Positions 50,693 through 64,000 of a stretch of 64,000 bases of DNA are shown in pieces. The notes under the pieces were generated by a model that worked only from the letters and a program-made list of their open reading frames with translations, did not search any database and had not been told where the DNA came from. The position numbers and the translations under genes are program-made. This stretch comes from an uncultured Sulfurovum sp. (GTDB lineage: Bacteria; Campylobacterota; Campylobacteria; Campylobacterales; Sulfurovaceae), in the NCBI GenBank assembly GCA_902727935.1, contig CACVAX010000043.1, forward strand, positions 1 to 64,000, written 5' to 3'. Numbering within the stretch: the stretch's first letter is position 1; every line of letters begins with the position of its first letter.

Positions 50693-51742
50693 TTAGGTTA
50701 ATGTATCCAAATGCTTCATAATTCTATTATGAAATTTACTTTCACCATCCTTACTCTCTACAATCTTTCTAACCTTTTCTATGTCTTCTATAATACCTTC
50801 GTATTCTTTAATTTTTTTCACCATATTGTTATCTTTTTTCTTGAACGACTCTAACTCTTTAATTAGAATTTCAAATTCACTAAGCCCCATATTCTCTTTC
50901 TTTTTTTCTTCTTCTTTACGCTTAGCTCTATTTTCTTTTTCTCTTTTTTCTGCTTCTTTTTCTTTTTCTCTTTTTTCCTCTTCAGTCAATAGAAATTCAA
51001 GTTGTCCATATCCAACATTTGTTTTTGCCCCTATTCCAAACTCTTCTAAAAGCGTTATAAATAATGCTTCCTTTTCTTGGGCAGTCGCAAATTGACTATC
51101 TTTTAAATCAAAACTAAACTCAAAAGTAACTTCAGGAGAAACTTTAATGAATTTTAAAGGTGTTGGTTCTTCACAAGGTTTATCTTTATGAGGGGTTATA
51201 TAATCTTTACTCAATAAAGACTTATTATTTTCTATGCCTACAACTCTAGCTTCATAAAATATATCCCGGTTATAAATACTTTTCATTTTTGATTTTTCAT
51301 GCTCTTGACTATCAGAGTCGACTCCCTCAAATATATCTTTTGCAAATGCTTCAACATCTAAGTCAGGTTGATTCATTAAATCTCTTATGTATTCATGTTT
51401 CTCTTCTTTGTATTTATCCTTTTGGTTTCCAAACTCCAAACCAAAACATGAACGGAGCATACCCTTAACAGAACTTCCCTGAATAAGTGGTAGTCCCGTT
51501 GTATGGTCAAAATAAAACCCAATCTTAACATCTTCATTATTGCTTAAACCATGACTATATCCACTACCAATAAGTAAACCTGGATAAAGTGTTTGTAGTT
51601 TAAAACTTTCTTTAGCATTCATACTTTCATCAACTGCACTGATTTTTAAAACTTCAGCTACAGTATGTGCAATTTGTTCATCACAATCACCGAGTTTATA
51701 CATTTCCTTATAAAAAAGCCAACCTATATTTGCGTTTGACAT
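50693..51742 (-). CDS. cmr6: Type III-B RAMP protein Cmr6 with coiled-coil tail
   Basis: The RAMP core (about 1-250) has YPGLLIGSGYSHG, LPLIQGSSVKGMLRSCF and the Gly-rich loop FGIGAKTNVGYGQLEF. Residues about 252-349 are an added, highly charged helical tail (EKREKEKEAEKREKENRAKR...) predicted to form a coiled coil, not part of standard Cmr6. ATG 51742 is preferred over GTG 51745 because AGGAG lies 5 nt upstream. Cmr6 caps the Cmr backbone and binds crRNA 3' parts. Confidence 0.9.
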   Translation of the reverse strand: MSNANIGWLFYKEMYKLGDCDEQIAHTVAEVLKISAVDESMNAKESFKLQTLYPGLLIGSGYSHGLSNNEDVKIGFYFDHTTGLPLIQGSSVKGMLRSCFGLEFGNQKDKYKEEKHEYIRDLMNQPDLDVEAFAKDIFEGVDSDSQEHEKSKMKSIYNRDIFYEARVVGIENNKSLLSKDYITPHKDKPCEEPTPLKFIKVSPEVTFEFSFDLKDSQFATAQEKEALFITLLEEFGIGAKTNVGYGQLEFLLTEEEKREKEKEAEKREKENRAKRKEEEKKKENMGLSEFEILIKELESFKKKDNNMVKKIKEYEGIIEDIEKVRKIVESKDGESKFHNRIMKHLDTLT

Positions 51743-51750
51743 CACAACTC

Positions 51751-52092: not shown

Positions 52093-52093
52093 C

Positions 52094-52951
52094 TTATAAC
52101 TCCTTAAACTTACAAACACCATACCCAATAGAAGCGTTTGCACCTATATGTATCGTATCGTTATCCATTAAGTAAGTAGCAAACTTTTCAAAAGCCTTTT
52201 CTAATCTATCTTTATCATCAAAATTTAAATAAGTCGGTTCAGAAATAACCGTAAAAAACTTACTTTTGCGTGGAAGAACCTCTTCATAAAAAAGATTCTT
52301 AGACTCACCATTTTCAAGTTGATTTCGTGCGATAATAGGCAAATTCTTTAAAAGTTCTGCATACTTCTTATTTGGAACAAGGGCTACTGGTGAACCTACA
52401 ATGCCTTCAAGTACCGATAGGTCATACGATTCATTAGAAGTAGCTTGAAAATCTTCTATAACAGGACTCTCCTTAGAAACCAACAATGCATCATCACTGT
52501 AATTTGCTAATGCTGTAAGAGCTTCTTTATCTTCAAGTGTTAAGCCAAAAGTATCTGCAAAATCAACTAAAAGTTCAATACTCTTAGGAGAAACACAATG
52601 ATAATAAGGGTTCAAATCTGACCTCATCGGTATTGAAAGAAGGTGTGCATCTATAAAGCGTACTTTTCCAGACTGTTCATCATCACCAAAAATATGTGCT
52701 ACCTGATTATATCTTGACTGCTCCTCCTCGGTATACTTTTCATCTTTGTCTTTATCTCTCTTAATTGGACATTCCAATTTATGCATAATATATTCTCTCA
52801 AAGCCCCCTTTAACGAAGAACTATGAATCGTTGGGTACTCTGTAATAGCATCTCTTTGTATCTGTTTGTCAATCACACCAAAGTTTGCATCTCCACTCCC
52901 TACGTGAAGTGATGTTTTGTTTTCAATAAGATAGAGTCTATTTTTATACAT
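52094..52951 (-). CDS. cmr4: Type III-B backbone RAMP Cmr4
   Basis: Cmr4 repeats along the crRNA and cuts target RNA at 6-nt steps. The 285-residue protein opens MYKNRLYLIENKTSLHVGSG. The ATG at 52951 has AAGGA upstream, so it is better than a TTG at 52966. The region after it carries DKQIQRDAITEYPTIHSSSL with KGALREYIM and an Asp near 27-31 (VIDKQIQRD), where the catalytic Asp of Cmr4 usually lies. NDTIHIGANASIGYGVCKF ends the RAMP. It overlaps the cmr3 end by 8 nt. Confidence 0.92.
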   Translation of the reverse strand: MYKNRLYLIENKTSLHVGSGDANFGVIDKQIQRDAITEYPTIHSSSLKGALREYIMHKLECPIKRDKDKDEKYTEEEQSRYNQVAHIFGDDEQSGKVRFIDAHLLSIPMRSDLNPYYHCVSPKSIELLVDFADTFGLTLEDKEALTALANYSDDALLVSKESPVIEDFQATSNESYDLSVLEGIVGSPVALVPNKKYAELLKNLPIIARNQLENGESKNLFYEEVLPRKSKFFTVISEPTYLNFDDKDRLEKAFEKFATYLMDNDTIHIGANASIGYGVCKFKEL

Positions 52952-54005
52952 GTTTTTTTCCTTCAATTTTAAAATAATGATTTATACCTACGGTTCGTAA
53001 ATGTTCTTGATTTAATGCCTTATCTAAGCGTTGTAAATCTTCTGTATAGAGTACCGAACCCCGTTCTAAAAGATAATACCGTTTTGACTTTTTACCATGT
53101 CGTGCATTGGTAAGTTGTCTAAAAGATGTTCTTTTTCCCCAAATAAAACTACATGCTTCATAGGCTTCTTGACTTATTACTGTTTCTGAAACCAATACCA
53201 TACGAGAAAGCTCTTTAACTTCATGCACTTCTTTAAAAAGTAGCTCAAAACCTTCTAGCTCTTCTTTTAATGTTAAAGCAAAAGACGACTGGTCTGCTCC
53301 CAATGAAACAATGACACTGCTATTCCATTTCAAAGGCTCTGAAAACGTTGCAAAAAATGCAAAATGAGCTGACTTTTGTGGAAAGTAACTCTTTTTTCGG
53401 AAAAAGCCATCTTCATCGCTCTCACTATCTTTAGATTTTTTAATGCCTACTGTTTCAATCTCTTTAAAAAAGTCTTCAAAGTTTTTCAACTTTTTGTTTT
53501 GTGAAATAAATTCAAAACATTCATGCTTCTTAGCGTCATAATCTTGAAAAACCAAGGCTTGTTTACGTCCTGAACCAAAAGAGACCAAAGCATTTTCTTG
53601 TGCTTTAAGCTCTAAGCCATAATCCTTAGCATTCGCTGTAAAACAACTTTTACCATCTTTAATAAAAATAGGAGACAAAAAAACTATGCTTCCAAGGTCA
53701 ACAGAGTTTTCATACGAAAAAGCTCCTGTTCCTGCCAAGTTTTTAGCATCTTCATGGTTTTGGCTAAACTTCCCTCTTCCACTACTGTCTACCCATTCAC
53801 CTTTTCGGTGCATGGTAAGATTTCCATTTTGAATTAACATGGTTTTTCGTAACATTCCCAAAAGAGCTGTTTGCTGTGGAAACTGTGTTGAGGTTGCAGA
53901 GTACCGTGATGACTCTTTACGTGTTTCATCAGCCCCAAAGGTAAACTCACCTCCAAAGAAAAAAGGCTCTAAGGGTTTCAGTGTTATTAAATATGTATGA
54001 CTCAT
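52944..54005 (-). CDS. cmr3: Type III-B RAMP Cmr3
   Basis: Cmr3 binds the crRNA 5' tag and contacts Cmr2. The 353-residue protein has EPFFFGGEFTFGADETRKES, FPQQTALLGMLRKTMLIQNG and a late LRTVGINHYFKIEGKKHV. Two RAMP folds are expected. It overlaps the cmr2 stop by 4 nt (ATGA), indicating coupled translation. Confidence 0.9.
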   Translation of the reverse strand: MSHTYLITLKPLEPFFFGGEFTFGADETRKESSRYSATSTQFPQQTALLGMLRKTMLIQNGNLTMHRKGEWVDSSGRGKFSQNHEDAKNLAGTGAFSYENSVDLGSIVFLSPIFIKDGKSCFTANAKDYGLELKAQENALVSFGSGRKQALVFQDYDAKKHECFEFISQNKKLKNFEDFFKEIETVGIKKSKDSESDEDGFFRKKSYFPQKSAHFAFFATFSEPLKWNSSVIVSLGADQSSFALTLKEELEGFELLFKEVHEVKELSRMVLVSETVISQEAYEACSFIWGKRTSFRQLTNARHGKKSKRYYLLERGSVLYTEDLQRLDKALNQEHLRTVGINHYFKIEGKKHV

Positions 54006-55357
54006 CTATCACCTCTCAATACTTTTATGGTTGACAACATTGAAAAAAGCTTCTCCTGCTCTTTTTCTTCTAATCCAAGGCTCAGCATAAGCTCTCTAAT
54101 CTCTTTTAATCCTTGTTCAAATGTATCTTTATGAATATCTTCATTAAATATATTATCAAACGTACTTTCAAGGCGTTCACTTTCAATAGACTTAAAAAGC
54201 ATTTGATGACTTTGGAGCTTATGGTGTACAGCGTGAGGTAACTCAACCTCTTCTTTCAGTACACTCTTAATAAGTGTTAAAAACTTCTCATAAGAATCTT
54301 CATCTTTCCCAACACAAAAGTCAAACGACTGTCCACTATGTTTTTGCGTAGAAACAGCAACAGCATTTTTACCTTCATGGTTTTTAGCAACACCAAAAAG
54401 TGCGTCTCTTGCACGTTCTAAAGCTTCATAAAGAGGATATTTATAATAGGTCAAACTTACCCCAAAACTCAATGTACTTTCATCTGTTTTAAGTGCCTTT
54501 TTATAGTCTTTACTTAAGGTATCAAGTAAATCAAAAACCGTTTCTCCTTTATTTAAAAGAGGTGCAAAAATAATCAAATCATCCCCACCAATAAAAATAG
54601 GCAATGCTCCATAATGTTCAATAGAAGCTACAGCTTTCTTATCAAATTCAAATAAGTTTTTAGAGACTTTTGTCACATCACCTTGTGATTTTATGTATTC
54701 CCCTAAATTGTCACCATCTGCGTAAATAATAGCAATGTATTTGTAAGCATTACTTGCATCAACATCATCCCCTAACTCCTGAGCAGCAATAGCATCAATG
54801 GCTTCAAATGAAGGCTTTTTCCCAAATGAAGCTTTTGCTAAATCTGAACCTAAAATAATATCTCTATTTAAAAAGAGTCTCAAATAGTCTTCGTCAGTAT
54901 CCAATATTGGTGTATGCAATTCTATACTGTCCATAATTTTTGAAATGTCTAAGATAGGGTGCTTAAACTTCTCGTTGCTTTCAAAAAGATAGGTTTGTAG
55001 GTACTGTCTAAAAAATGCTTTTACTTTATCTGAATCTTTTTTAATACTCTTAGCCACCATCATAGCTATAGCATCTTTCTCTTCTTCTAAAATAGTTTCA
55101 ACTTCTTCCAATGTTAAAGTATCACTCTGCAAAATAAAACGGTCATGAAACATCCCTACTCCGTTGTCTTGCTCTTCAAGTAATGCATCATCAACAAAAG
55201 GAATAATAAATTTAGCATCACTACGTTCTTTAATTTTCTTAATACTTTTTTTCATAAAAGATGAAAACAGATAACTTGCCATCCACACCTCTGATGTTTT
55301 ACGACCCAAAGAAAGTGTATCTACAATTGGTCCTATGGTTAGGGCTATGTATTTCAT
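54002..55357 (-). CDS. cmr2: Type III-B large subunit Cmr2/Cas10, small HD-less form with intact GGDD
   Basis: At 451 residues this Cas10 is much shorter than the usual 700-900. It begins directly with KYIALTIGPIVDTLSLGRKT, so there is no N-terminal HD nuclease domain. The palm domains keep IIYADGDNLGE (Asp214, Asp216) and the cyclase motif FIGGDDLIIF (GGDD 257-260). A four-helix domain D4 (about 370-445) follows. The intact GGDD predicts nucleotide second messenger synthesis on target RNA binding. With CorA and NrN next door, the product may be SAM-AMP (inference from the Bacteroides fragilis system). Confidence 0.93.
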   Translation of the reverse strand: MKYIALTIGPIVDTLSLGRKTSEVWMASYLFSSFMKKSIKKIKERSDAKFIIPFVDDALLEEQDNGVGMFHDRFILQSDTLTLEEVETILEEEKDAIAMMVAKSIKKDSDKVKAFFRQYLQTYLFESNEKFKHPILDISKIMDSIELHTPILDTDEDYLRLFLNRDIILGSDLAKASFGKKPSFEAIDAIAAQELGDDVDASNAYKYIAIIYADGDNLGEYIKSQGDVTKVSKNLFEFDKKAVASIEHYGALPIFIGGDDLIIFAPLLNKGETVFDLLDTLSKDYKKALKTDESTLSFGVSLTYYKYPLYEALERARDALFGVAKNHEGKNAVAVSTQKHSGQSFDFCVGKDEDSYEKFLTLIKSVLKEEVELPHAVHHKLQSHQMLFKSIESERLESTFDNIFNEDIHKDTFEQGLKEIRELMLSLGLEEKEQEKLFSMLSTIKVLRGDR

Positions 55358-56574
55358 GATATTCCTTTTGAATTTTGTTCTACTTTTTGCATAGAATTAA
55401 AAATACGTTGAAGCGTTTTAAATATTTCGTTGTTTTGTTGAAATTTACTATCTATATGTGTAGCTACATTTTGTTTTGAGACAAACTCAAGATATTTACT
55501 TATATCAAATGTTTCGGGTGTTGATATATCAAAATCATCAGATGAACCATTAGAAATGGTAAAAGTTTTATTCAAAATATCTTTAGAGATTTCAACACCC
55601 CAAAAATAAACAATGTACTCATCGTCTTCCAAAACAGGTTTAAAGATAATTGGCGAAGGAAAACGAGCAATATTTTTAGATTTTTTACTAATAGTTGTAT
55701 TATCATAACTCATCCAATCAGACTCTAAAGATAAACCTAAAAGATCTCTATACAAGAAAGGTTTTTTAGTTGAAGCTAATATATCAGAATTTGGATATTT
55801 TTCTTGCTGATTTTTCAACTCATCTTTAAAAAAAAACTCTTTTATTTTTTTCTTTTCCCAAGTCATATTGTCTTGCGTATTGTTTACATATAACCAAAGA
55901 AAAGATTTACCATAAAATACGGGGCTATTATGCTTATCATACTCATTAATACCACTTTTTAACATCTTATAAAAATAATAAATACTATTATATACAGCTT
56001 CTAGTTGTTTACTTCCAACTTTAAAAGAGTAGCAGTTCTCTGGATAGTTAGTTATAACCTCTTCTTTATTGGAAAAACTACCAAAGCCTTTAGACGTTCC
56101 TCCTCCAAAATTGGTTTGAAAAATAAAATCAGAAAAGTTACTTTCAAGAATTACTTTTAAATCTTTATTAAAAGTATTCACAGTAACTATATGTTCAAAG
56201 TTTCTATGAAATATTTGCTGAATCGTACCCCCACCCATATTCCCCATAAATAATCTCTCATCAGGCAATCCGTTAAGGTCTACTTTATCATCACTGACTT
56301 TTTTCTTGACAATCCTAACCTTATAATCCAAAGCTTTCTTCCCTTCAAAATCTTTCTCTGTCATCGCTTTTTCATTAGGTTTACTAGGCTCTTTGTAACC
56401 TATTAAATACTTTTTATATTGTTCAAACTCATTATTAAAAACATGTTTTATCAAAAACCTATCAAACTTAGGTTTCAATTCAGTAGCCCGAAGCGTTGCA
56501 CCACTTTGTTCACTTTGAAAGTGAATAATGGGGGTGTGTTGCTTGAGGCTAAACGTAGCTTTAAATTTACTCAT
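55354..56574 (-). CDS. cmr1: Type III-B RAMP Cmr1
   Basis: The 406-residue protein starts MSKFKATFSLKQHTPIIHFQ with SGATLRATELKPKFDRFL, the usual Cmr1 opening. FQTNFGGGTSKGFGSFS is its Gly-rich RAMP loop. Cmr1 sits at the crRNA 3' end of the complex. It overlaps both the NrN-CorA and cmr2 genes by 4 nt. Confidence 0.88.
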   Translation of the reverse strand: MSKFKATFSLKQHTPIIHFQSEQSGATLRATELKPKFDRFLIKHVFNNEFEQYKKYLIGYKEPSKPNEKAMTEKDFEGKKALDYKVRIVKKKVSDDKVDLNGLPDERLFMGNMGGGTIQQIFHRNFEHIVTVNTFNKDLKVILESNFSDFIFQTNFGGGTSKGFGSFSNKEEVITNYPENCYSFKVGSKQLEAVYNSIYYFYKMLKSGINEYDKHNSPVFYGKSFLWLYVNNTQDNMTWEKKKIKEFFFKDELKNQQEKYPNSDILASTKKPFLYRDLLGLSLESDWMSYDNTTISKKSKNIARFPSPIIFKPVLEDDEYIVYFWGVEISKDILNKTFTISNGSSDDFDISTPETFDISKYLEFVSKQNVATHIDSKFQQNNEIFKTLQRIFNSMQKVEQNSKGIS

Positions 56575-58802
56575 TTTTTTCCTTTATCTGTTTTCTTTTT
56601 CTCATTTATAAAAAAATTAACAATAAATGGTGAAACTACCGTCAGAAGAATGACACTTGCTAACCATCCTGTACTTTCCACATTTAAACTCTCTTTACCA
56701 AAAACGTTCATACCAAAAAAGCCGGCTACCAAAGTAGGTGGAATAAGATAAGTTCCTAACTTGCTAAGCTTTGTCATCTCTTTTTTCTCTTCACGCTCCT
56801 GCTCTAAAAAAGCATAACCATTGAGTGTACCTATCTCCTCCCTTAGATCTTCAACATCACGTTTAATGTTTAAAATATCAATGGCTTTATCATAAAGTTC
56901 TATACCTTGATCTTGAGCTGTTACCTCTTTAAAATAGAGCTTGTTAACAAACCGTAAATAGTTTTTATAGAGTACTGATATATTTTCACTTGATGGATTC
57001 TCTCCACCTTTAACATCTGATATAGCTGTGATTTCATCAGAAAAACGTAACAGTGTTGCCCGTTGGGCTAAGAGAAGCGATACCATTTGAAAATACATTG
57101 TTTTCATATGAGGTAAAGGTAAGTCGTCTCGTGTAAAACCACTGTTTTGACTTAAGCAAACAAATGAATAACGTGTAATCCCAAAAAATGTTCCATACTT
57201 ATTCCAACGTTTGTAAGTTGCTTTTTCTATCAACTCTTTATGCATTGATGTATCTTGCACCGTAATATCATTACCATCCACAAAAACATATTTGTACCAG
57301 TTGTCGTTCTCTATGTTTTCTTTGGTACAGGTTACGAAAGCATCATTACCATACCAAGAAAGCACAAACATCCTATCATCTATGATAGGTTGTAAAAAGT
57401 ATTTGTCCTCATTTGATGTGTCGGTGCTAAAACTATCACCCAAAATTTCTATGATGTATTTTGCAAGCTTAATCTCTTTATATAAATCACAAAAACGCTC
57501 TTCAATCCCGTTGACCGTAATGGACTCTGGCAAAAAAGACTTTTTAGTATCTTCTGTACTAAAATTAGCTCCCAAAAACTGAGGATAAACCCTACGTCCA
57601 TAATCATTGATTTTTAAAATATCTTCTATTTGATAATAATCATAATTCTCCACTTCAAAAGAAAGAATTCCCACACCCGTATCAAAGAGTCTAAGGTTGA
57701 CCCCTTCAAGTTTCAAAACATAAGGTTCTTTACCTTTTACTTTAAGTTCAAAAGTTGCCTCATTGTTGAGTTTTTTCTCAAAATAGTAAGAAGTAGCTCC
57801 CTCGTCAAATACTTTTGCTGTATTAAACAATGTATCTTTCACAAAATCATGAAAATAGACTATTTCATTATAGTCTAGGTTATTTTTAACTTCAAAAGGT
57901 TCATATTTCCACTTATTCTTTTCTAAACTATTTTTAAATGACTCATCTATCTTTACACGTTTATCAAAACTATGTTTTTTATAAAATTCATGTCGATCCT
58001 CAAAGCTTTCAACTATCTTATCAAACCGAAACGGAAACATAAAATTATGATAACTAATAATGTTTTTTTGTTTCACCTCTACTATCTCCTTAACTAAAAT
58101 ATTCGGTGTTACCAAACCTACATAGGCAGTGTCAAATCCAAAATAGCCACGACTGTGATAGGCTTCTTTGTTTTCTATCTGTTTTTTATACTTCTCTTTT
58201 AAAAACGCTATGTCACCATAGTAGGTAAAACTCTTTTGAGAGTAAACCAATAAAGGACGCTTTTCATAGTTGTCTACAATGGGTGAAAAAGCATCTAACG
58301 TTGTTTCTATAATAGAGATACCATTTTTTTCAACCACAGCTTCACTCTCTTTTTGAGCTTGAAGTTCATCTTTTGCTGTTATCCCTTGGATGGTTCTCTC
58401 TTGTTGTCGTATGCTTTTTATCTCTTCAGCTGTTGCACCCAAACACTTCATCGCTTCTATGTGTCCTACATCATTCGCAGAGATAAGTTTGTGTTCTCTA
58501 GTAGGTTTTAATTCTAAGCATTCTAAAACTTGAAAAAGACTCGACGCTTTATCTACTTGTTCATTATGATGGTCAATGGCATGATAGTTTTTAGGAATAG
58601 CTATATCTTCTATGAGTTCTACACCATAAATGGTTTTGTCTTGATGCTCTTTTAAAACTTCGGTATAAGAGGAGAGTTTTGCACCCCATGAGAGTTCATG
58701 GTCTATAACCGTAAAACCTTTTTCTTCTAATAGCTTTTTAATTGTTAACATCTCAAGGTCATGACCCCCAAGAAGGAAAAGGGTATTTTCTTTTTTTATC
58801 AT
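56571..58802 (-). CDS. NrN (DHH phosphoesterase)-CorA fusion, putative SAM-AMP effector
   Basis: The 743-residue protein joins two known type III-B accessory modules. Residues about 1-240 are DHH-like: LFLLGGHDLEML (His14-Asp15), VIDHELSWG, the signature HAIDHHNEQ (DHH 77-79), SANDVGHIEA and a DHHA1-like end (AYHSRGYFGFD). Residues about 270-743 are CorA-like: LFDTGVGILSFEVENYDYYQ, RRVYPQFLGANF, long helices, and membrane helices at the end with the GMN motif (697-699, FFGMNVFG). In Bacteroides fragilis, CorA is opened by SAM-AMP and NrN destroys SAM-AMP (established). Here the off-switch and the pore are one chain. It is the first gene of the cas operon. Confidence 0.88.
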   Translation of the reverse strand: MIKKENTLFLLGGHDLEMLTIKKLLEEKGFTVIDHELSWGAKLSSYTEVLKEHQDKTIYGVELIEDIAIPKNYHAIDHHNEQVDKASSLFQVLECLELKPTREHKLISANDVGHIEAMKCLGATAEEIKSIRQQERTIQGITAKDELQAQKESEAVVEKNGISIIETTLDAFSPIVDNYEKRPLLVYSQKSFTYYGDIAFLKEKYKKQIENKEAYHSRGYFGFDTAYVGLVTPNILVKEIVEVKQKNIISYHNFMFPFRFDKIVESFEDRHEFYKKHSFDKRVKIDESFKNSLEKNKWKYEPFEVKNNLDYNEIVYFHDFVKDTLFNTAKVFDEGATSYYFEKKLNNEATFELKVKGKEPYVLKLEGVNLRLFDTGVGILSFEVENYDYYQIEDILKINDYGRRVYPQFLGANFSTEDTKKSFLPESITVNGIEERFCDLYKEIKLAKYIIEILGDSFSTDTSNEDKYFLQPIIDDRMFVLSWYGNDAFVTCTKENIENDNWYKYVFVDGNDITVQDTSMHKELIEKATYKRWNKYGTFFGITRYSFVCLSQNSGFTRDDLPLPHMKTMYFQMVSLLLAQRATLLRFSDEITAISDVKGGENPSSENISVLYKNYLRFVNKLYFKEVTAQDQGIELYDKAIDILNIKRDVEDLREEIGTLNGYAFLEQEREEKKEMTKLSKLGTYLIPPTLVAGFFGMNVFGKESLNVESTGWLASVILLTVVSPFIVNFFINEKKKTDKGKK

Positions 58803-58970
58803 CTCTTTTATTCTTTCCTATTAAATTAACTACTTAGCCATTTTAACCTCCAAAAGTTAAATCATTTTGAAAAAATTACAATTAAAATTAAAAATTAAAA
58901 ATATATTAATATTATTAACATATAAAAAATAAATTCAATAGTTCAAAACAATAAAACACTTAATATCTTT
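58803..58970. promoter_or_regulatory. Divergent control region between the cas operon and the micro-ORF array
   Basis: About 170 nt of very AT-rich DNA with no gene separates the minus-strand cas operon start from the first phage-type promoter on the plus strand. It should hold the sigma70 promoter of the cas operon; no single -10 box stands out. AATTAAAATTAAAAATTAAAAAT is a local run of tandem near-repeats at 58878-58901. Confidence 0.5.
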
Positions 58971-58973
58971 TTT

Positions 58974-58997
58974 CCCAACTGGTGACTAAAGAAGAAA
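58974..58997 (+). promoter_or_regulatory. Phage-type promoter P1 (predicted target of the resident RNA polymerase)
   Basis: CCCAACTGGTGACTAAAG with +1 G predicted at 58991, followed by AAGAAA. ACTAAAG matches T3 (CACTAAAG) and GGTGAC...AGAAG resembles SP6. Identical in layout to P2-P4. It precedes the 77-codon ORF. Confidence 0.7.
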
Positions 58998-59001
58998 AAA
59001 T

Positions 59002-59039
59002 GTCTGAGATGACCCACGGATACTCAAAATGAAGAGTCC
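59002..59039 (+). ncRNA. Two-hairpin RNA element E1
   Basis: Stem 1 GTC-TGAGAT-GAC (59002-59013) and stem 2 ACTC-8 nt-GAGT (59022-59037) with flanking GG/CC. It starts about 11 nt after the predicted +1 of P1. Stem 1 differs from the GCC/GGC of other copies but still pairs. Confidence 0.7.
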
Positions 59040-59063
59040 ATACCATTTAACCAAAGGAAGAAC

Positions 59064-59297
59064 ATGCACATAACCTACCATGCTGCAGAGCGTTTTTTAC
59101 AACGTGTCTTTCGGTTCACCATTTATAGTAAAACGCAGATTCGCAATGCCATGCAACTGCTTGACCGTGATTTGTCTAAGCTACAAACACGGAACAAGCG
59201 TCATGTGATTTTGCCCTCGTTTCCTAACTTTTATGGGGTGTTCCTTGAAAACACGCTTGTAACCGTCATACCAAAACGTACTAACGCAACACTGTAG
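59064..59297 (+). CDS. 77-residue basic protein, first gene of the array
   Basis: The protein starts MHITYHAAERFLQRVFRFTI and ends LENTLVTVIPKRTNATL. The early H-A-x-x-R-F-x-x-R pattern followed by two strands resembles DUF4258-like and related small RNase/toxin-fold proteins; this is a weak resemblance. It has net positive charge. AGGAAGAAC upstream is its ribosome site. It lies behind P1 and E1, is read towards the polymerase gene, and is somewhat richer in GC than its neighbours. Confidence 0.6.
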   Translation: MHITYHAAERFLQRVFRFTIYSKTQIRNAMQLLDRDLSKLQTRNKRHVILPSFPNFYGVFLENTLVTVIPKRTNATL

Positions 59298-59318
59298 TGA
59301 CTTTATGTTTGCCATTTT

Positions 59319-59342
59319 CCCAAGTGGTGACTAAAGAAGAAA
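59319..59342 (+). promoter_or_regulatory. Phage-type promoter P2
   Basis: CCCAAGTGGTGACTAAAG, one change from the other copies (C to G at -12), predicted +1 G at 59336, then AAGAAA. Confidence 0.7.
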
Positions 59343-59349
59343 AATGCTT

Positions 59350-59388
59350 GGCTGTGATGCCTATTAACGTACTTGAAATGAAAAGTGC
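59350..59388 (+). ncRNA. Two-hairpin RNA element E2
   Basis: Stem 1 GGC-TGTGAT-GCC (59350-59361) has both sides swapped relative to the common GCC/GGC, and stem 2 GTACTT-8 nt-AAGTGC (59369-59388) replaces ACTC/GAGT by ACTT/AAGT. Both are compensatory changes. Confidence 0.7.
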
Positions 59389-59416
59389 TAAAAATTTATT
59401 ATCGAAAGGATGTTTT

Positions 59417-59443
59417 ATGGGTATTTGTATCTGTTTCCCTTAA
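59417..59443 (+). CDS. Micro-ORF, 8 codons (MGICICFP)
   Basis: ATG at 59417 lies 6 nt after GAAAGGA, the same distance as in the other array ORFs. A second reading from ATG 59410 gives a 23-residue hydrophobic peptide (MFYGYLYLFPLILVLTTQSA plus IAV) ending at 59481, but its ribosome site would be too close. Confidence 0.35.
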   Translation: MGICICFP

Positions 59444-59472
59444 TTCTAGTGCTAACAACACAAAGTGCTATT

Positions 59473-59504
59473 GCCGTATAGGCTAAGGTTACTCGAAAGA
59501 GTCC
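59473..59504 (+). ncRNA. Two-hairpin RNA element E3, promoterless
   Basis: Stem 1 GCC-GTATA-GGC (59473-59483), stem 2 ACTC-GAAA-GAGT (59491-59502) with a shorter GNRA-type loop and flanking GG/CC. No phage-type promoter precedes it, so it should be part of the P2 transcript. Confidence 0.65.
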
Positions 59505-59533
59505 AAATGTTTTATAAGATATGAAGGATATTT

Positions 59534-59572
59534 ATGAGCTTTCCACCAAGAACGCTACCATGGATTTTTTAA
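59534..59572 (+). CDS. Micro-ORF, 12 codons (MSFPPRTLPWIF)
   Basis: ATG at 59534 follows GAAGGATATTT. The peptide is rich in Pro and aromatic residues. The stop lies 7 nt before P3. Confidence 0.4.
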   Translation: MSFPPRTLPWIF

Positions 59573-59579
59573 ACAATTT

Positions 59580-59603
59580 CCCAACTGGTGACTAAAGAAA
59601 GAA
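59580..59603 (+). promoter_or_regulatory. Phage-type promoter P3
   Basis: CCCAACTGGTGACTAAAG with predicted +1 G at 59597, followed by AAAGAA. The whole P3-E4-leader block (59578-59676) is nearly identical to the P4 block (59768-59867). Confidence 0.72.
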
Positions 59604-59609
59604 AAGATT

Positions 59610-59645
59610 GCCTGTGATGGCTTAAAGATACTCGAACCCAAGAGT
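59610..59645 (+). ncRNA. Two-hairpin RNA element E4
   Basis: Stem 1 GCC-TGTGAT-GGC (59610-59621), stem 2 ACTC-GAACCCAA-GAGT (59630-59645). Followed by AACAACTATTTAAAC and AAGGAG. Confidence 0.7.
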
Positions 59646-59673
59646 CTAACAACTATTTAAACAAGGAGAACCA

Positions 59674-59754
59674 ATGATTCCTATTCCCTTATGTGTCCAA
59701 CTGATTGTGGCTGTAAGTGCGATTGTGGCTGGTAAGAAACTTCTCAAAGACTAA
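59674..59754 (+). CDS. Small hydrophobic peptide, 26 codons
   Basis: The peptide starts MIPIPLCVQLIVAVSAIVAG and ends KKLLKD: one short membrane-spanning stretch with a basic end, a layout seen in type I toxins and small membrane effectors. AAGGAGAACCA stands directly before the ATG. PLC-x-L-I is shared with the 16-codon ORF behind P4, so the two may be relatives. Confidence 0.55.
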   Translation: MIPIPLCVQLIVAVSAIVAGKKLLKD

Positions 59755-59769
59755 GGTCTAAGAGATTTT

Positions 59770-59793
59770 CCCAACTGGTGACTAAAGAAAGAA
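59770..59793 (+). promoter_or_regulatory. Phage-type promoter P4
   Basis: CCCAACTGGTGACTAAAG with predicted +1 G at 59787. It is preceded by TTTT, as are P2 and, in part, P1 and P3. Confidence 0.72.
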
Positions 59794-59799
59794 AAGATT

Positions 59800-59835
59800 G
59801 CCTGTGATGGCTTAGAGATACTCGAACCCAAGAGT
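59800..59835 (+). ncRNA. Two-hairpin RNA element E5
   Basis: Stem 1 GCC-TGTGAT-GGC (59800-59811), stem 2 ACTC-GAACCCAA-GAGT (59820-59835); nearly identical to E4. Confidence 0.7.
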
Positions 59836-59864
59836 CCAACAACTATTTTAACCAAGGAGAACCA

Positions 59865-59915
59865 ATGGCTAACCCACTATGTGAGCTTATCTGTATTATC
59901 TTAAACGAAAAGTAA
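59865..59915 (+). CDS. Micro-ORF, 16 codons (MANPLCELICIILNEK)
   Basis: ATG 59865 follows AAGGAGAACCA, the best ribosome site type in the array. Hydrophobic with two Cys; it shares PLC-x-L-I with the 26-codon peptide. Confidence 0.45.
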   Translation: MANPLCELICIILNEK

Positions 59916-59933
59916 TGCAACCCTAATGCTACT

Positions 59934-59971
59934 GCCTGAAATGGCTTATGGATACTCAAAACAAAGAGTCC
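59934..59971 (+). ncRNA. Two-hairpin RNA element E6, promoterless
   Basis: Stem 1 GCC-TGAAAT-GGC (59934-59945), stem 2 ACTC-AAAACAAA-GAGT (59954-59969) with flanking GG and CC. Expected in the P4 transcript. Confidence 0.68.
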
Positions 59972-59998
59972 AACCCTATTTTAAACAAAGGAAAAACA

Positions 59999-60064
59999 AT
60001 GATACTACCAAACTACGAACTACCAGAACTAACTTTTTTACCACCACTTGAATGGTTGTACTAA
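59999..60064 (+). CDS. Micro-ORF, 21 codons
   Basis: Reads MILPNYELPELTFLPPLEWL and a final Tyr, acidic with four Pro and a hydrophobic end. AAAGGAAAAACA precedes the ATG. No relative known. Confidence 0.45.
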   Translation: MILPNYELPELTFLPPLEWLY

Positions 60065-60087
60065 GGAAGGTTTGAACAAAGCTGAAT

Positions 60088-60146
60088 GCCTGTGATGGCT
60101 AACAAGAACACCCAAACCAAGGTGTCTCTTTTTTTCATTTTATTTT
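60088..60146 (+). terminator. Last two-hairpin element E7 merged with a terminator
   Basis: Stem 1 GCC-TGTGAT-GGC (60088-60099), stem 2 ACACC-CAAACCAA-GGTGT (60108-60125), another compensatory variant (ACTC/GAGT replaced by ACACC/GGTGT). It is followed by CTCTTTTTTT and more T-rich sequence up to the polymerase stop codon. No ORF follows, so this copy probably ends the array transcript. Confidence 0.7.
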
Positions 60147-63100
60147 CTAAGCAAAAAAGTAGTCTGATTTTAAAATCTCTTCCAAATCAAACCCCTCTTT
60201 GTCTACATAAGGAATCTTTTTTAATTTTATTTTAAAAACATCTTCAAAAAAGAGTGTTAATTCACTTAATAACGCTTTTTTATGCAGTTCTATAAATGCT
60301 TCTTTTAAACTAGTAGAGAGAATGCCCACCTCATTGGCATGGGTAGCAAATGAATCATGCACGGTTACCATGTCGCATATCCCTTTTTCATTTAAAGCAT
60401 TGACCGTCATCATAAGGTGAGAAGCATCCAAAGAGTGAATGTAGTTTGGGGCAATCCCTTTGCTATGTCCTGCTTTGTCCATTTTGTTGTTGTAGACTTT
60501 AAAGGTTACATCACGTGTTCCTTGTTCGGTAGAAACTTTAATCTTGTCTGAGAGAAACTCGACTTGTTTTACTTCTAAACCAAGAGGTGTTTTCCAAAAA
60601 ATGGCTTTCTCTTTTTTGACAATCTCTGTGGCATACCTTTTAATCCATTTTTTATATTTTTCAGGCGATAAGGAGACCGATGAGAGTGCTTTTTCTAAGA
60701 GCTTTGTAATCTCACGTGACACCAGCATTCTATTAGCTTCATCCAAATGAGACAAAACACCTTTTGACTCTATCTTTTCCAACAATGCTTTGGCTTTCCC
60801 CTCGGTACTGGAACCATAAGACTCCGTCATTACAGGACCTTTGACAAACGAACGGTTTATTAATCCTTCTTCTAAAAAAGCTTCATAAAGTGAAGAAGCT
60901 ACCAATGAGTTTTTTTCCTCTTCTTTCATGGCTTTCTCTTTTTTTAGCACTATTCTACTGTTTTTCAAGTCACGATTTGCTCGATTACTTAACGCCATAA
61001 TACGTTCAGAAAAAGAGTACTTGACCTCTTCTAAATCCTCTTCGGTTACCTCTTTTCGTATTTTTTGTTCTTCTTTTTTAAGTATTTTTTTAATACTTTC
61101 TAACTCTTTTTGCGTGTAGTCTAACTTCCACTGCATTTTTTTCATGAGTAAGGTTGTAAAATGGCTATTGTTCTTGCACTCCTCAACATTCACCTCTTCC
61201 AACGTCTCTACTACTTCTCCTAAATGATACTCAGGAGCAAAAACTTCTTCTGTGCTAGTACTATAAAAAAGCCCCTTTTCTTCTACATAGTTTCCTTTTT
61301 GAGTTAAAAAAAGCTCTTTCTCTTTTTTCATAAGCTTCTGTAGTTCCATGGCAACTTCAGCATAAAAGTCACTCATTTTTAACTTGTCTTCTTCATCATA
61401 AGAGGGTAAAACATTGACCATTTTTGCTCCCTCTTTGTCTCTAAGTAGGGCTGTAATGTGCTGAAAGCCATTGTTAGAACCGTCTATGGCAACGGGTATA
61501 CCTGTGGTAAAAGTATCAGGGTTTTCCACATAACGGGCGTATTCAAAACACCATGCCAAAAATTTAAAAGGGTCTCCTGCTGTTTGCCAAAACATCTCTT
61601 TTTTGTAATCTTTAGCCGAAGCCATAATGTGTTCATGATGCTCTTCTACCCATGCTACACGTTTTTCAAAAACTTCTTTATCTACCTCTCCATAACAGTT
61701 TGCTCCATGCACAAGAAACCACTTTTTACCCTCTTGATTTAAAGGCTTTTCCTTGGCAAAAAGAAGTAAAGATTTGGCTAAATCTCCTGCTTGTGGGTGT
61801 AAAAGTGTCTGTTGTGGGTAGATACGCCCTCTAAAGTCCATACGCCATACAAAATAAAACTGCTTATATTTTTGCATCTCTTGGGCTATCTTGACAATGC
61901 TGTTAAACCCATCTTTGTATTTGGCAATCTCATAATAGATTTCACTGTCGAGTTTAAACTGCTCTTTGTTTTCACTCTTTTCAAATGCTTTTATGGCTTT
62001 GTCAATTCGGGCTTTGTCTGCTTTGCTTAACGCTTTGTCATAGAGTTTTATAAATTTAGTTTTTTTAAAATGCTCATATACCAACGCTTTAGAAGCATCT
62101 TCTAAACCACTTCCCAACAACTCACGTAAAATCCGATAATAGGGAAAGTCTACATGATTTTTCTTTTTAAGATTACTAATTTGTCCATGATAACTTTGAA
62201 GTACCTCTAACATCTTCTCATTAATTTTAAAGGCTGTTTTTTGTACATGATTCAGTGCATCTAGTACTGTTTGGGGAATCTCTTTTCCTTTTAGAGCTTC
62301 TTTGTCTTTTTTACTCGAAGCCTTAATGCACGTCAAATCAAAATGCCTCTGTTCTGGTTCATCTTCTAAAAACCCTCCTCCGTAAAGACCTTTCCACTCT
62401 CTTGGTTCAACCACCATGGGTTTGTAGGTCATGGAAGCCCCTAACACAATCTGCTTGTCAGCTTTGGCTTTAAGTATTTTTAGAAAGTCTCGGTTGAGTT
62501 TAAAATAGTTAAAATTGGTCTCATCATTGGGTTTGGTGTATTCACTCAGCATCTCTACAGTACAAGCAAACTCTAGCATCTTTTGACCTACTTGCAGTTC
62601 AAGTTCATGCGACCAAAGAGGATTAGAGAGGGCTTCTATGTTCTCAAAATCGCTCTGCTCATACGCACGAAATGCTTTTTTGAGTTCTTCGTTTTGTAAA
62701 CCCAGTTCATCACGTAAAAATCGCCATGCCACACGCTGATGCAAGGCTTCGCCTATCTCTGCTCCAAAGGTCTGTTTGGAGTTGGCAGAGTTCTCTTCAT
62801 CGGCATTGTCTTTTTCTTGTAAAGAGAGCAGATGTACGGTTAGCATATTGACCATCTCATTGCTTCCCAATGTCCAAAGTGCCAACGCTATACGATGTGA
62901 ACTCTCTGTAAAAAATTCCTTTTTCTTCTTGGACAAAAACCCATAAAAATCTCCCCCAATACTAAGCTCTTTCCTCAAAAGGTCAAGCATATTTTGTATG
63001 TTTTGCTCCAATGTTTTTACATTCATCTGGCTAAAAGCTTGTTTACTTTTTATGACCTCTTCTAAACCTTCTGCAAACTTTGTTTTGTCTAACAACATAA

Positions 63101-63389
63101 GCGTTAGAGATTTGGCTACAGCATCATGAATGTTTTTATACTCCACACCCAATAGCCTTGCGTATCTGTCATTATCTTCTCGAATAGTTTTACTCACAAC
63201 TTCTTGTAAAAACTGCTCCATAAACCCATCGACCTGTGCTATGAGACGCTTAACATAGCTTAGTAATCCACTGGCTTTAGCAAAACTTTGCACGTGGGTA
63301 TCTTTTTTAGAAGAGAGTTGTTCTATGCGTTCTTTAAGCAGTCCATACGAAGAGGCTTGTAACTCTTTTTGTTCAGCTATTAAATCCAT
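60147..63389 (-). CDS. T7-type single-subunit DNA-directed RNA polymerase
   Basis: The 1080-residue protein (from ATG 63389) matches T7 RNA polymerase throughout its C-terminal two thirds: MDFRGRIYP, KWFLVHGANCYG, LAWCFEYA. Motif A is VAIDGSNNGFQHITALLRD (Asp636, T7 Asp537). Motif B is NRSFVKGPVMTESYGS (Arg846, Lys850, Tyr858; T7 627, 631, 639). Motif C is VTVHDSFATHA (Asp1012, T7 Asp812), and the foot is ILKSDYFFA (T7 ILESDFAFA). All catalytic residues are kept. T7 has 883 residues; a Lys/Glu-rich insert of about 120 residues lies between motifs A and B. The ATG shares TAATG with the upstream nuclease gene; a GTG at 63401 is an alternative start. No other phage structural gene is near. Confidence 0.95.
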   Translation of the reverse strand: MDLIAEQKELQASSYGLLKERIEQLSSKKDTHVQSFAKASGLLSYVKRLIAQVDGFMEQFLQEVVSKTIREDNDRYARLLGVEYKNIHDAVAKSLTLMLLDKTKFAEGLEEVIKSKQAFSQMNVKTLEQNIQNMLDLLRKELSIGGDFYGFLSKKKKEFFTESSHRIALALWTLGSNEMVNMLTVHLLSLQEKDNADEENSANSKQTFGAEIGEALHQRVAWRFLRDELGLQNEELKKAFRAYEQSDFENIEALSNPLWSHELELQVGQKMLEFACTVEMLSEYTKPNDETNFNYFKLNRDFLKILKAKADKQIVLGASMTYKPMVVEPREWKGLYGGGFLEDEPEQRHFDLTCIKASSKKDKEALKGKEIPQTVLDALNHVQKTAFKINEKMLEVLQSYHGQISNLKKKNHVDFPYYRILRELLGSGLEDASKALVYEHFKKTKFIKLYDKALSKADKARIDKAIKAFEKSENKEQFKLDSEIYYEIAKYKDGFNSIVKIAQEMQKYKQFYFVWRMDFRGRIYPQQTLLHPQAGDLAKSLLLFAKEKPLNQEGKKWFLVHGANCYGEVDKEVFEKRVAWVEEHHEHIMASAKDYKKEMFWQTAGDPFKFLAWCFEYARYVENPDTFTTGIPVAIDGSNNGFQHITALLRDKEGAKMVNVLPSYDEEDKLKMSDFYAEVAMELQKLMKKEKELFLTQKGNYVEEKGLFYSTSTEEVFAPEYHLGEVVETLEEVNVEECKNNSHFTTLLMKKMQWKLDYTQKELESIKKILKKEEQKIRKEVTEEDLEEVKYSFSERIMALSNRANRDLKNSRIVLKKEKAMKEEEKNSLVASSLYEAFLEEGLINRSFVKGPVMTESYGSSTEGKAKALLEKIESKGVLSHLDEANRMLVSREITKLLEKALSSVSLSPEKYKKWIKRYATEIVKKEKAIFWKTPLGLEVKQVEFLSDKIKVSTEQGTRDVTFKVYNNKMDKAGHSKGIAPNYIHSLDASHLMMTVNALNEKGICDMVTVHDSFATHANEVGILSTSLKEAFIELHKKALLSELTLFFEDVFKIKLKKIPYVDKEGFDLEEILKSDYFFA

Positions 63390-64000
63390 TAGTTCCCCCA
63401 CTTATTACTTAATGCTTGAATACTTTTTTTATTTTCTTCTCTAAAATACTCTTCTTTTAAGGCTACCGAAAAAGCCTGTTCTATTTTACTTCTAAAGGCA
63501 TTTCTACTAAAGTCAAAACTGTTGTAGATAGCCACTTTTTTTGTCTTGGCACGGTAAATGAGTGATGCCCCAAAGTTACGTTTACTCTGTTTTAAATGGG
63601 GTGTTTTGTCCCGTTCTACATTTAAAATAAGGCTTGAAGCCGTCTCACCAAAGTAGTCCATAATCGAATCACTCTTATAGATAGTCCCCAAAGGGTCGTG
63701 CGAATCACCTATTTTACACTCTATAAAGCCTATTTTGTTGTTTTTAATGGTCAAAATGTCAAATTCATTCACGACTTGAATGTTTTTAGTGTTTACTTGA
63801 TGTTCATCAAAACGTATTTTTGCCCCTACTTTTATGTCGTCAAAGTCAAACTTTTTAACCTGTAAGTAGACAAAAGACTCAAAAAGAAAGCCAAAACGTA
63901 CAAAACCTTCTTGTCCGTTCATTACATAGTCTTGGTTCACTATCTCCAGTTTTCTTAAGGCTTCCATGACCTTAGGGTAGTTTTTTCTTAATGCTTTTGT
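63389..64000 (-). CDS. DUF1887/Card1-like nuclease, C-terminal part, open at the window edge
   Basis: The frame stays open through the right edge (codons for TKALRKNYPKV precede the internal Met at 63967), so only the C-terminal part is visible. It carries a PD-(D/E)xK nuclease core: Glu30 in FGFLFESFVYL, Asp70 in VVNEFDILTIKNNK and Glu83-Lys85 in GFIECKIGD (counted from 63967). Spacing and flanking blocks resemble the nuclease half of DUF1887 proteins such as Card1/Can2, whose N-terminal CARF domain binds cyclic tetra-adenylate. The CARF half would lie outside the window. It is translationally coupled to the polymerase gene. Confidence 0.6.
   Translation of the reverse strand, partial: TKALRKNYPKVMEALRKLEIVNQDYVMNGQEGFVRFGFLFESFVYLQVKKFDFDDIKVGAKIRFDEHQVNTKNIQVVNEFDILTIKNNKIGFIECKIGDSHDPLGTIYKSDSIMDYFGETASSLILNVERDKTPHLKQSKRNFGASLIYRAKTKKVAIYNSFDFSRNAFRSKIEQAFSVALKEEYFREENKKSIQALSNKWGN

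What the first reader, a model, noticed from the sequence alone, without database searches (positions are those of the whole stretch)
58970..63389. Resident T7-type RNA polymerase next to an array of phage-type promoters: an apparent self-contained orthogonal transcription circuit in a type III CRISPR locus
The sequence shows a complete T7-like polymerase with all catalytic residues. In the adjacent 1.2 kb there are four copies of an 18-nt element whose downstream half (ACTAAAG, then purines) is the hallmark of T3/T7-class promoters. Nothing else in the window carries this element. No phage head, tail or DNA replication gene is seen, and the neighbours are CRISPR genes. By inference the polymerase reads the array. 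The function could be an amplified defence output, or expression of decoy RNAs. Alternatively the promoters could be bait that an infecting T7-like phage polymerase also fires.
Basis: partly seen in the sequence, partly recalled or inferred. Interest (0 to 1): 0.95.

Follow-up and report, generated by a model that had tools for sequence, protein, structure and literature searches.

The report
CRISPR locus with private RNA polymerase
In some Campylobacterota a type III CRISPR immune locus carries its own T7-type RNA polymerase and, beside it, a row of matching promoters that drive tiny conserved genes, which looks like a private, phage-derived expression circuit built into a bacterial immune system.

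Summary
Window 60147-63401(-) encodes a complete T7-type RNA polymerase (RNAP). Four promoter-like elements lie beside it and nowhere else in the assembled genome. RNAPs of this clade were found in 9 genomes. In 8 of 9, type III CRISPR genes lie on the same contig; in 8 of 8 where the neighbouring DNA is assembled, such an array adjoins. Five of six ORF families, tested by codon comparison, are under purifying selection. Two deep-branching RNAPs have arrays with another promoter core (CATATAG type, not CTAAAG), as expected if each enzyme reads its own array. The promoter has no exact match in the viral-contig collection. Best reading: a domesticated phage polymerase expresses a micropeptide set as an arm of type III immunity. 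Transcription of the array is strongly supported; the peptides' action and the trigger are inferred. My paper searches found no description.

The parts
60147..63401 (-). T7-type single-subunit RNA polymerase, 1084 aa (GTG at 63401 or ATG at 63389)
   Evidence: PF00940 E 3.1e-81; phrog_414; Foldseek T7 RNAP E 2.1e-35; catalytic residues
63389..64000 (-). Card1-like CARF/PD-(D/E)XK nuclease, 395 aa in full (to contig position 64576), upstream of and overlapping the RNAP gene
   Evidence: PF09002; PADLOC CARF4--CARF_PDDEXK E 8.6e-44
58970..58999 (+). promoter element 1, predicted +1 at 58991
   Evidence: direct repeat family D3
59315..59344 (+). promoter element 2, predicted +1 at 59336
59576..59605 (+). 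promoter element 3, predicted +1 at 59597
59766..59795 (+). promoter element 4, predicted +1 at 59787
58991..59063 (+). leader of unit 1: hairpin 1 (GTC/GAC stem), hairpin 2 (ACTC/GAGT), ribosome-binding site; leaders of this kind precede the other five micro-ORFs too
   Evidence: leader alignment A5, covariation
59064..59297 (+). micro-ORF a, 77 aa (MHITYHAAERFLQRV...VTVIPKR...), predicted beta-alpha-alpha-beta-beta-beta fold
   Evidence: 9 members compared, pN/pS 0.33; AF2 pLDDT 88.9
59417..59443 (+). micro-ORF d, 8 aa MGICICFP
   Evidence: relatives in G128 and G068
59534..59572 (+). micro-ORF f, 12 aa MSFPPRTLPWIF (no promoter of its own)
   Evidence: similar by eye to MIFPPRNLPLF in G468; selection not tested
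59674..59754 (+). micro-ORF b, 26 aa, hydrophobic by eye (MIPIPLCVQLIVAVSAIVAGKKLLKD)
   Evidence: pN/pS 0.42 over 5 members
59865..59915 (+). micro-ORF c, 16 aa MANPLCELICIILNEK
   Evidence: pN/pS 0.32 over 4 members
59999..60064 (+). micro-ORF e, 21 aa with LPPLxWL motif (no promoter of its own)
   Evidence: 7 members, pN/pS 0.44
60088..60136 (+). array end: hairpin 1 plus terminator-like hairpin and T run
   Evidence: fold, (z -1.0 against shuffles, so the fold energy alone is not significant)
56571..58802 (-). DHH (NrN-type)-CorA fusion, type III membrane effector
   Evidence: PADLOC DHH_CorA E 2.1e-61 and CorA E 3.5e-135
55354..56574 (-). Cmr1
   Evidence: PADLOC
54002..55357 (-). Cas10/Cmr2 with GGDD in the translation
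   Evidence: PF22335 E 4e-27; PADLOC Cas10b
52944..54005 (-). Cmr3
   Evidence: PF09700
52094..52966 (-). Cmr4
50693..51745 (-). Cmr6
48455..50692 (-). reverse transcriptase-Cas1 fusion
   Evidence: PF00078 and PF01867
45878..47683 (.). CRISPR array, 25 repeat copies; a second array with the same repeat (7 copies, the last degenerate) lies beyond the window at contig 65096-65582

Best explanation
A phage-type RNA polymerase has been domesticated as an ancillary gene of a type III-B CRISPR locus. Its gene overlaps that of a Card1-like CARF nuclease, so the two are probably one operon. It recognises the promoters of the adjacent array, on the opposite strand, and transcribes that array up to a terminator just short of its own gene. 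The RNAs carry conserved two-hairpin leaders and are translated into a set of micropeptides plus a 77-aa protein. These act during infection as an effector or abortive-infection arm of the CRISPR system. Because the enzyme is independent of the host polymerase, it keeps working if a phage shuts off host transcription. Shown by sequence: polymerase, array, conserved micro-ORFs, linkage to type III genes, divergence of promoter together with polymerase. Inferred: that the enzyme reads the array (very likely), that the peptides are antiviral or toxic effectors (likely), and that expression of the operon or the CRISPR second messenger sets the timing (open).
For: Linkage: of 9 genomes with an RNAP of this clade (window, G130, G128, G025, G013, G509, G419, G068, G468), 8 have Card1-like, CorA/DHH or Cmr genes on the same contig (by HMM; for G128 by reading). 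The ninth (G468) has a 4.9-kb contig with RNAP and array only, but pieces of a Cas10 73-78% identical to the window's elsewhere and a second array beside a Card1-DHH gene. Array: present beside the RNAP in 8 of 8 with assembled neighbouring DNA (G509's contig ends inside the RNAP gene; G419's array is partial). Co-occurrence: the 77-aa protein is in 7 of 175 family genomes and the RNAP in 7 of 175; 6 are the same, and in the two exceptions (G001, G509) the relevant contig ends there. Divergence together: CTAAAG core in six arrays, CCCTTCACTAAAG in G419, CATATAG-type in the deep-branching G068 and G468. Selection: pN/pS 0.11-0.44 in the five families tested, most differences at codon position 3. 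Clade: 8 CRISPR-locus RNAPs against 12 sampled phage RNAPs, 100/100. Specificity: 4 sites in the assembly, all in the array.
Against: No biochemical or expression data. No peptide has a recognised function: no credible Pfam match for the 77-aa protein (best DUF4771, E 0.035), and its Foldseek matches are not significant (best E 0.18, a CadC DNA-binding domain; ParE2 0.55, HigB 0.95, RelE 1.8). Diverged relatives of the 77-aa protein occur in other settings in 8 of the 11 genomes with a match, of 348 searched, so that protein is not specific to this system. Of 27 family genomes with a Cas10 match, 23 have no RNAP match, so the module is dispensable for type III function. Conversely the Cas10 search found none in 3 of the 7 family RNAP genomes (G013, G419, G509), whose RNAP contigs all break off nearby. 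The G419 polymerase frame is interrupted in its assembly. Crown-group RNAPs with different letters at T7 756/758 (D/T or K/E) share one promoter core, so residue-by-residue pairing is not shown. The G468 promoter variants were picked by eye, and no promoter core was recognised in its second array (L119). G068 has 2 promoters for 6 ORFs. No evidence ties RNAP activity to the CRISPR messenger. G068 and G468 are not resolved as sisters (63/37).
Confidence: 0.6

Rival explanations
1. The resident RNAP reads the array, but the peptides are regulators or immunity factors (for example modulators that hold CorA or Card1 in check) rather than toxic effectors.
For: Array and RNAP lie between or beside the Card1-like and CorA genes in the loci whose assembly covers them. 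Peptides are conserved, which fits binding to conserved partners. The 77-aa fold class is uncertain.
Against: Two type III loci without the RNAP carry Card1-like and CorA genes, by reading, directly next to each other with no room for an array between them (L104, L105), so no obligatory regulator is missing there. Micro-ORF b is hydrophobic, as small membrane-active toxins are (inference).
Confidence: 0.2
2. The active products are the structured RNAs, and the micro-ORFs only serve translation-coupled processing, ribosome capture or arrest.
For: Leaders have two covarying hairpins (covariation score 0.274, shuffled mean 0.143, 0 of 500 shuffles reach it). Some ORFs are only 8-12 codons. PP- and FP-stop endings could stall ribosomes (recalled, not tested).
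Against: Substitutions are most frequent at third codon positions and pN/pS is 0.11-0.44, so amino-acid sequence is selected. No Rfam match.
Confidence: 0.1
3. Promoters are bait: an infecting T7-like phage polymerase fires them.
For: Promoters resemble the T7/T3 class; T7-type phages are common (2592 phage records match the RNAP).
Against: The array comes with its own RNAP wherever the assembly allows the test, and promoter core diverges with it at the deepest splits. CCCAASTRGTGACTAAAGA has 0 exact matches in viral contigs (no mismatches allowed). No repeated 14-mer of this kind in the phage-type region of G444 (first 12 kb of L058).
Confidence: 0.05
4. The RNAP and array are a remnant or satellite of a T7-like phage that happened to insert in a CRISPR locus.
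For: The RNAP is of phage type.
Against: Same type III neighbours and overlapping gene set in genomes of three families and with RNAPs only 29-33% identical, although the gene order differs in G068. Open frames and catalytic residues kept in 7 of 7 complete copies. No phage structural gene seen nearby by reading. No relative of micro-ORF a found in phages, plasmids or viral contigs.
Confidence: 0.05

Closest known systems
T7/T3 transcription system (phage RNAP plus its class of promoters)
   Same: Single-subunit RNAP fold, catalytic residues, C-terminal end FFA, promoter with TAAA/TATA before a +1 G followed by purines; a dedicated promoter set
   Different: Encoded in a bacterial CRISPR locus, about 200 aa longer than T7 RNAP (inserts at 80-101, 107-177, 435-470, 712-812), promoter letters at -7 to -11 differ from T7 and T3 (recalled), payload is an array of micro-ORFs, no phage genes seen
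Type III-B CRISPR with CorA-NrN (SAM-AMP signalling; Chi et al. 2023, PMC10600005, three passages and abstract start seen)
   Same: DHH-CorA fusion as reported there for A. butzleri and related species, Cmr complex, Cas10 with GGDD
   Different: That paper has 0 occurrences of 'RNA polymerase'; here an RNAP-array module is added, and a Card1-like CARF nuclease as well
Card1/Can2 CARF nucleases
   Same: Neighbouring gene, PADLOC CARF4--CARF_PDDEXK
   Different: Its gene overlaps or directly precedes an RNAP gene here
RelE/ParE and colicin-type small toxins (fold class)
   Same: Predicted order of strands and helices of the 77-aa protein (recalled comparison)
   Different: Foldseek matches not significant; catalytic residues not tested

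Membership tests
T7-type single-subunit RNA polymerase | family HMM and fold | tested here: met
T7-type single-subunit RNA polymerase | catalytic D537, K631, Y639, D812 (T7 numbering; roles recalled) | tested here: met
   7 of 7 CRISPR-locus RNAPs compared
T7-type single-subunit RNA polymerase | transcribes from its own promoters | not testable with these tools
   only divergence of promoter and polymerase together
T7/T3-class promoter | AT-rich -4 to -1 before a +1 G, purine-rich start (recalled) | tested here: met
   CTAAAGA in the window's four sites
T7/T3-class promoter | T7 or T3 specificity letters at -7 to -11 (recalled) | tested here: not met
   window letters differ, so it is not a T7 or T3 promoter itself
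Type III-B CRISPR-Cas | Cas10/Cmr2, Cmr1, Cmr3, Cmr4, Cmr6 with CRISPR arrays | tested here: met
Known type III ancillary effector families | RNAP matched by a known defence model | tested here: not met
   0 PADLOC families for the RNAP
Prophage | phage structural or DNA replication genes beside the RNAP | tested here: not met
   by reading of ORFs in window, own contig and five other loci; PHROGs run on three proteins only
RelE-like or related RNase fold (77-aa protein) | significant structural match | tested here: inconclusive
   AF2 pLDDT 88.9; Foldseek ParE2 E 0.55, HigB 0.95, RelE 1.8, colicin D 4.9
Small membrane-active toxins (micro-ORF b) | growth arrest or membrane damage on expression | not testable with these tools
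   hydrophobic sequence only, by eye

The most novel reading that the evidence does not exclude
Type III CRISPR immunity has acquired a private gene-expression machine: a captured phage RNA polymerase that, during infection, floods the cell with a cocktail of micropeptides from its own promoter array, and can do so after the phage has shut off host transcription. To my knowledge it would be the first CRISPR output that is a dedicated transcription circuit and not only a messenger-activated enzyme.
Probability: 0.45. Interest if true: 0.96.

Novelty: categorically new. Interest (0 to 1): 0.92.

Why it matters
The type III outputs I know of (recalled) are proteins switched on by a nucleotide messenger. 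A resident orthogonal polymerase with its own promoter-micropeptide array is a different kind of output. It would be a natural precedent for the T7 expression circuits used in the laboratory, and a source of new polymerase-promoter pairs. No annotated relative of the 77-aa protein was found; the shorter ORFs are too short for such searches. The conserved module makes the function of the micro-ORFs directly testable in laboratory E. coli.

Tried and rejected
Single-protein scan of viral contigs found no relative; with an alignment, 16 phage RNAPs at 26-39% in the best segment. In one search, 15 of 175 family genomes match the promoter pattern with up to 2 mismatches: four have 3 or 4 copies (G000, G013, G025, G001); the 11 single copies were taken as chance and not examined further, except that G509's stretch was fetched (L102) and not analysed. 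RNAPs in G444 and in the Rhizobiales contig L027 lie among phage-type genes by reading and serve as outgroups; G656 was not examined. Prophage, bait and decoy-RNA readings were set back as above. Self-targeting: 24 + 5 spacers have no 16-base match in window 50001-64000. Rfam: none. Fold of the 77-aa protein: no significant match. In one search the one-clade test was set up wrongly (G419 left in the tree but outside the group, p 2.7e-07); the tree was rebuilt without that fragment (100/100).

Choices by hand: the micro-ORFs were picked by eye from the longer list, which also shows other ORFs behind ribosome-binding-like motifs. The families for one search were grouped by eye, and diverged members were left out (b-like ORFs of G068, G468 and G013 587, with G025 and G001 counted apart; c-like of G068, G468 and L119; d-like of G468; e-like of G068, G468 and L119; all of f). 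The leader alignment holds all 28 leaders of seven loci; the 13 leaders of G068 and G468 and those of L119 were not aligned. Only 3 RNAP-less type III loci were looked at as controls (L103-L105), of 23 RNAP-less genomes with a Cas10 match. Papers: Shah 2019 and Shmakov 2018 (type III neighbourhood surveys, recalled) are not held, so prior mention there cannot be excluded.


Full report
CHECK OF THE OBSERVATION. The ORF at 60147-63401(-) is a T7-type RNA polymerase by family HMM (PF00940 E 3.1e-81; phrog_414 E 2.4e-157) and by predicted fold (mean pLDDT 81; Foldseek best match T7 RNAP elongation complex, E 2.1e-35). The residues that align with T7 D537, K631, Y639 and D812 are all present (D640, K854, Y862, D1016). 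Four 30-nt direct repeats lie at 58970, 59315, 59576 and 59766, all on +. With up to 3 mismatches the 20-nt pattern occurs four times in the 2.4-Mb assembly, all here, so it is not chance (7 matches to the core in the window, shuffles mean 0.77, 0 of 100 as many).

The elements head cassettes: promoter, predicted +1 G and purine run, hairpin 1 (stem GCC/GGC, GTC/GAC or GGC/GCC around a TGAGAT-like loop), hairpin 2 (ACTC/GAGT), ribosome-binding site, short ORF. I pick six such ORFs in the window: 77 aa; MGICICFP; MSFPPRTLPWIF; MIPIPLCVQLIVAVSAIVAGKKLLKD; MANPLCELICIILNEK; and MILPNYELPELTFLPPLEWLY. Four of the six have a promoter of their own. Elsewhere the promoters per picked ORF are 3 of 4 (G130, G128, G025), 4 of 6 (G013), 2 of 6 (G068), 4 of 7 (G468) and 1 of 2 (G419, partial); G001 shows 3 promoters and 2 ORFs before its contig ends. 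After the last ORF, hairpin 1 recurs and is followed by a hairpin and a run of T just before the end of the convergent RNAP gene (fold energies are about one standard deviation better than shuffles). The two hairpins covary over 28 leaders from 7 loci: 85.2% of cells paired against 77.3% in shuffles, covariation score 0.274 against 0.143, 0 of 500 shuffles as high. Related sequences inflate such scores, so this is support and not proof.

GENOMIC SETTING. The RNAP gene overlaps an upstream 395-aa Card1-like gene (PADLOC CARF4--CARF_PDDEXK E 8.6e-44). On the far side of the array lie a DHH-CorA fusion, Cmr1, Cas10 (GGDD present in the translation), Cmr3, Cmr4, Cmr6 and an RT-Cas1 fusion. CRISPR arrays with one repeat lie on both flanks (25 copies in the window, 7 beyond it). 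In the window, G130 and G025 the module sits between Card1 and CorA. In G013 an AAA-ATPase/PDDEXK gene stands in the Card1 place, in G128 the contig begins at the RNAP behind a transposase-like fragment, and in G068 the order is RNAP, array, Card1-DHH, CorA. In two RNAP-less type III loci of the same family the corresponding Card1-like and CorA genes, identified by reading, are 17 and 13 nt apart (L104, L105). A third such locus (L103) ends inside CorA.

RELATIVES. RNAPs of this clade were found in 9 genomes: 6 of 149 relatives have a match; 7 of 175 family genomes; 5 of 398 order genomes, one of them G444 of phage type; 3 of 397 phylum genomes, two of them G444 and G656, which score like phage types. 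A scan of genome contigs returned 8 loci: seven of this clade under named Campylobacterota records (three Sulfurovum), and one Rhizobiales locus with phage-type neighbours by reading. One Sulfurovum record matches a genome of the window's own genus (G025), so the window is probably from a Sulfurovum-like bacterium (inference). On-contig type III genes: window, G130, G128 (by reading), G025, G013 (DHH-CorA fragment), G068, G509 (Card1-like only) and G419 (Card1-like only), which is 8 of 9. G468's RNAP contig holds only RNAP and array, but the genome has Cas10 pieces 73-78% identical to the window's and a second array next to a Card1-DHH gene. The array is beside the RNAP in 8 of 8 testable cases. 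G001 has array, CorA and Cmr1, but its contig ends before any RNAP. In the Cas10 search, 27 of 175 family genomes match; 4 of these have the RNAP and 23 do not, while 3 of the 7 RNAP genomes (G013, G419, G509) show no Cas10 match, their RNAP contigs being cut short.

SAME PARTS, SAME FAMILIES. The 77-aa proteins of six other loci are 57-75% identical to the window's, including 58% in G068, whose RNAP is only 32-33% identical. In the family it occurs in 7 of 175 genomes and the RNAP in 7 of 175. Six are the same genomes; G001 (array only) and G509 (RNAP only) each end at a contig edge. In an order-wide sample, 11 of 348 have it: three with RNAP, and eight as diverged genes in other settings with no RNAP on the fetched stretch of 3.7 to 15.4 kb. 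It was not found in 50,697 phage records, 72,556 plasmid records or viral contigs at the sensitivity used. pN/pS is 0.33 (a), 0.42 (b), 0.32 (c), 0.11 (d; three members only) and 0.44 (e), with most substitutions at the third codon position. So these ORFs are translated and selected as peptides; f was not tested.

POLYMERASE AND PROMOTER DIVERGE TOGETHER. Six arrays (window, G130, G128, G025, G013, G001) share GTGACTAAAG or, in two G001 copies, GTGGCTAAAG. G419 has CCCTTCACTAAAG. The deep-branching G068 and G468 have TTGACATATAG and variants around TGGACATATAG (the G468 sites were picked by eye). The residues that align with T7 R756 and Q758 also differ: D/T or K/E in the crown group, Q/Q in G068, S/Q in G468. 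Since D/T and K/E enzymes share one core, single-residue pairing is not shown. All 8 near-complete CRISPR-locus RNAPs stand on one side of a 100/100 branch against 12 sampled phage RNAPs. Listed phage matches are 26-32% identical over 12-69% of the query (30 of 2592 records shown); viral contigs 26-39% in the best segment. This is what is expected if each enzyme reads its own array. It is not a biochemical proof.

HOW IT PROBABLY WORKS. Shown: a complete polymerase, an array with promoters found only there, conserved micro-ORFs, and linkage to type III genes. Inferred: the enzyme transcribes the array. It is expressed with Card1, so its timing is tied to the CRISPR operon. The peptides are effectors, with b (hydrophobic, 26 aa) and a (RelE-like topology, not significant) as the best candidates for harm to the cell. 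The advantage would be transcription that a phage cannot stop by disabling host RNAP. The trigger is the weakest step. The polymerase has four inserts relative to T7 RNAP (80-101, 107-177, 435-470, 712-812). G068, at 892 aa, lacks much of the last one (alignment A1), so it is not needed in all members. No messenger-binding domain was recognised by Pfam or PADLOC.

WHAT IS KNOWN. Searches of open papers for T7-like, phage-type, phage-like or single-subunit RNAP together with CRISPR or bacterial-chromosome terms gave nothing on such a system (and 105 for Sulfurovum with type III CRISPR; listings only). 'RNA polymerase' has 0 occurrences in the main texts of PMC11229360, PMC12669027 and PMC10600005, which I searched by term and did not read in full. 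PMC10600005 reports fused nrn-corA in A. butzleri and related species (passage), which fits the CorA gene here. Two older surveys are not held.

VERDICT. Real, recurrent, and to my knowledge undescribed. Confidence that the resident RNAP reads the array: about 0.9. Confidence in the defence-effector reading as a whole: 0.60.

Noticed in passing
L019:13038-14852 (G068) and L119:692-2107 (G468): Card1-like nuclease fused to the DHH domain that elsewhere is fused to CorA (PADLOC): the phosphodiesterase has swapped partners.
   Followed up: partly
L130, L131, L132, L133, L134, L135, L136, L137: Diverged relatives of the 77-aa protein stand in other settings in other Campylobacterota, twice next to a PcfJ-like gene (L130, L131) and once near a 592-aa protein whose start resembles CARF proteins by eye (L134; no Pfam match).
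   Followed up: partly
L015:13887-15616 and L016:12648-15155: The RT-Cas1 frame is split into at least two ORFs in both G130 and G128, by frameshift or assembly error.
   Followed up: no
window 46626-46740 and 46846-46960: A 115-nt stretch with CRISPR repeat and spacer is duplicated exactly within the array.
   Followed up: no
L018:5167-6717: In G013 the gene upstream of the RNAP is an AAA-ATPase/PDDEXK_9 protein in place of the Card1-like nuclease.
   Followed up: no
window 2492-3337: Transposase-like ORF by reading.
   Followed up: no
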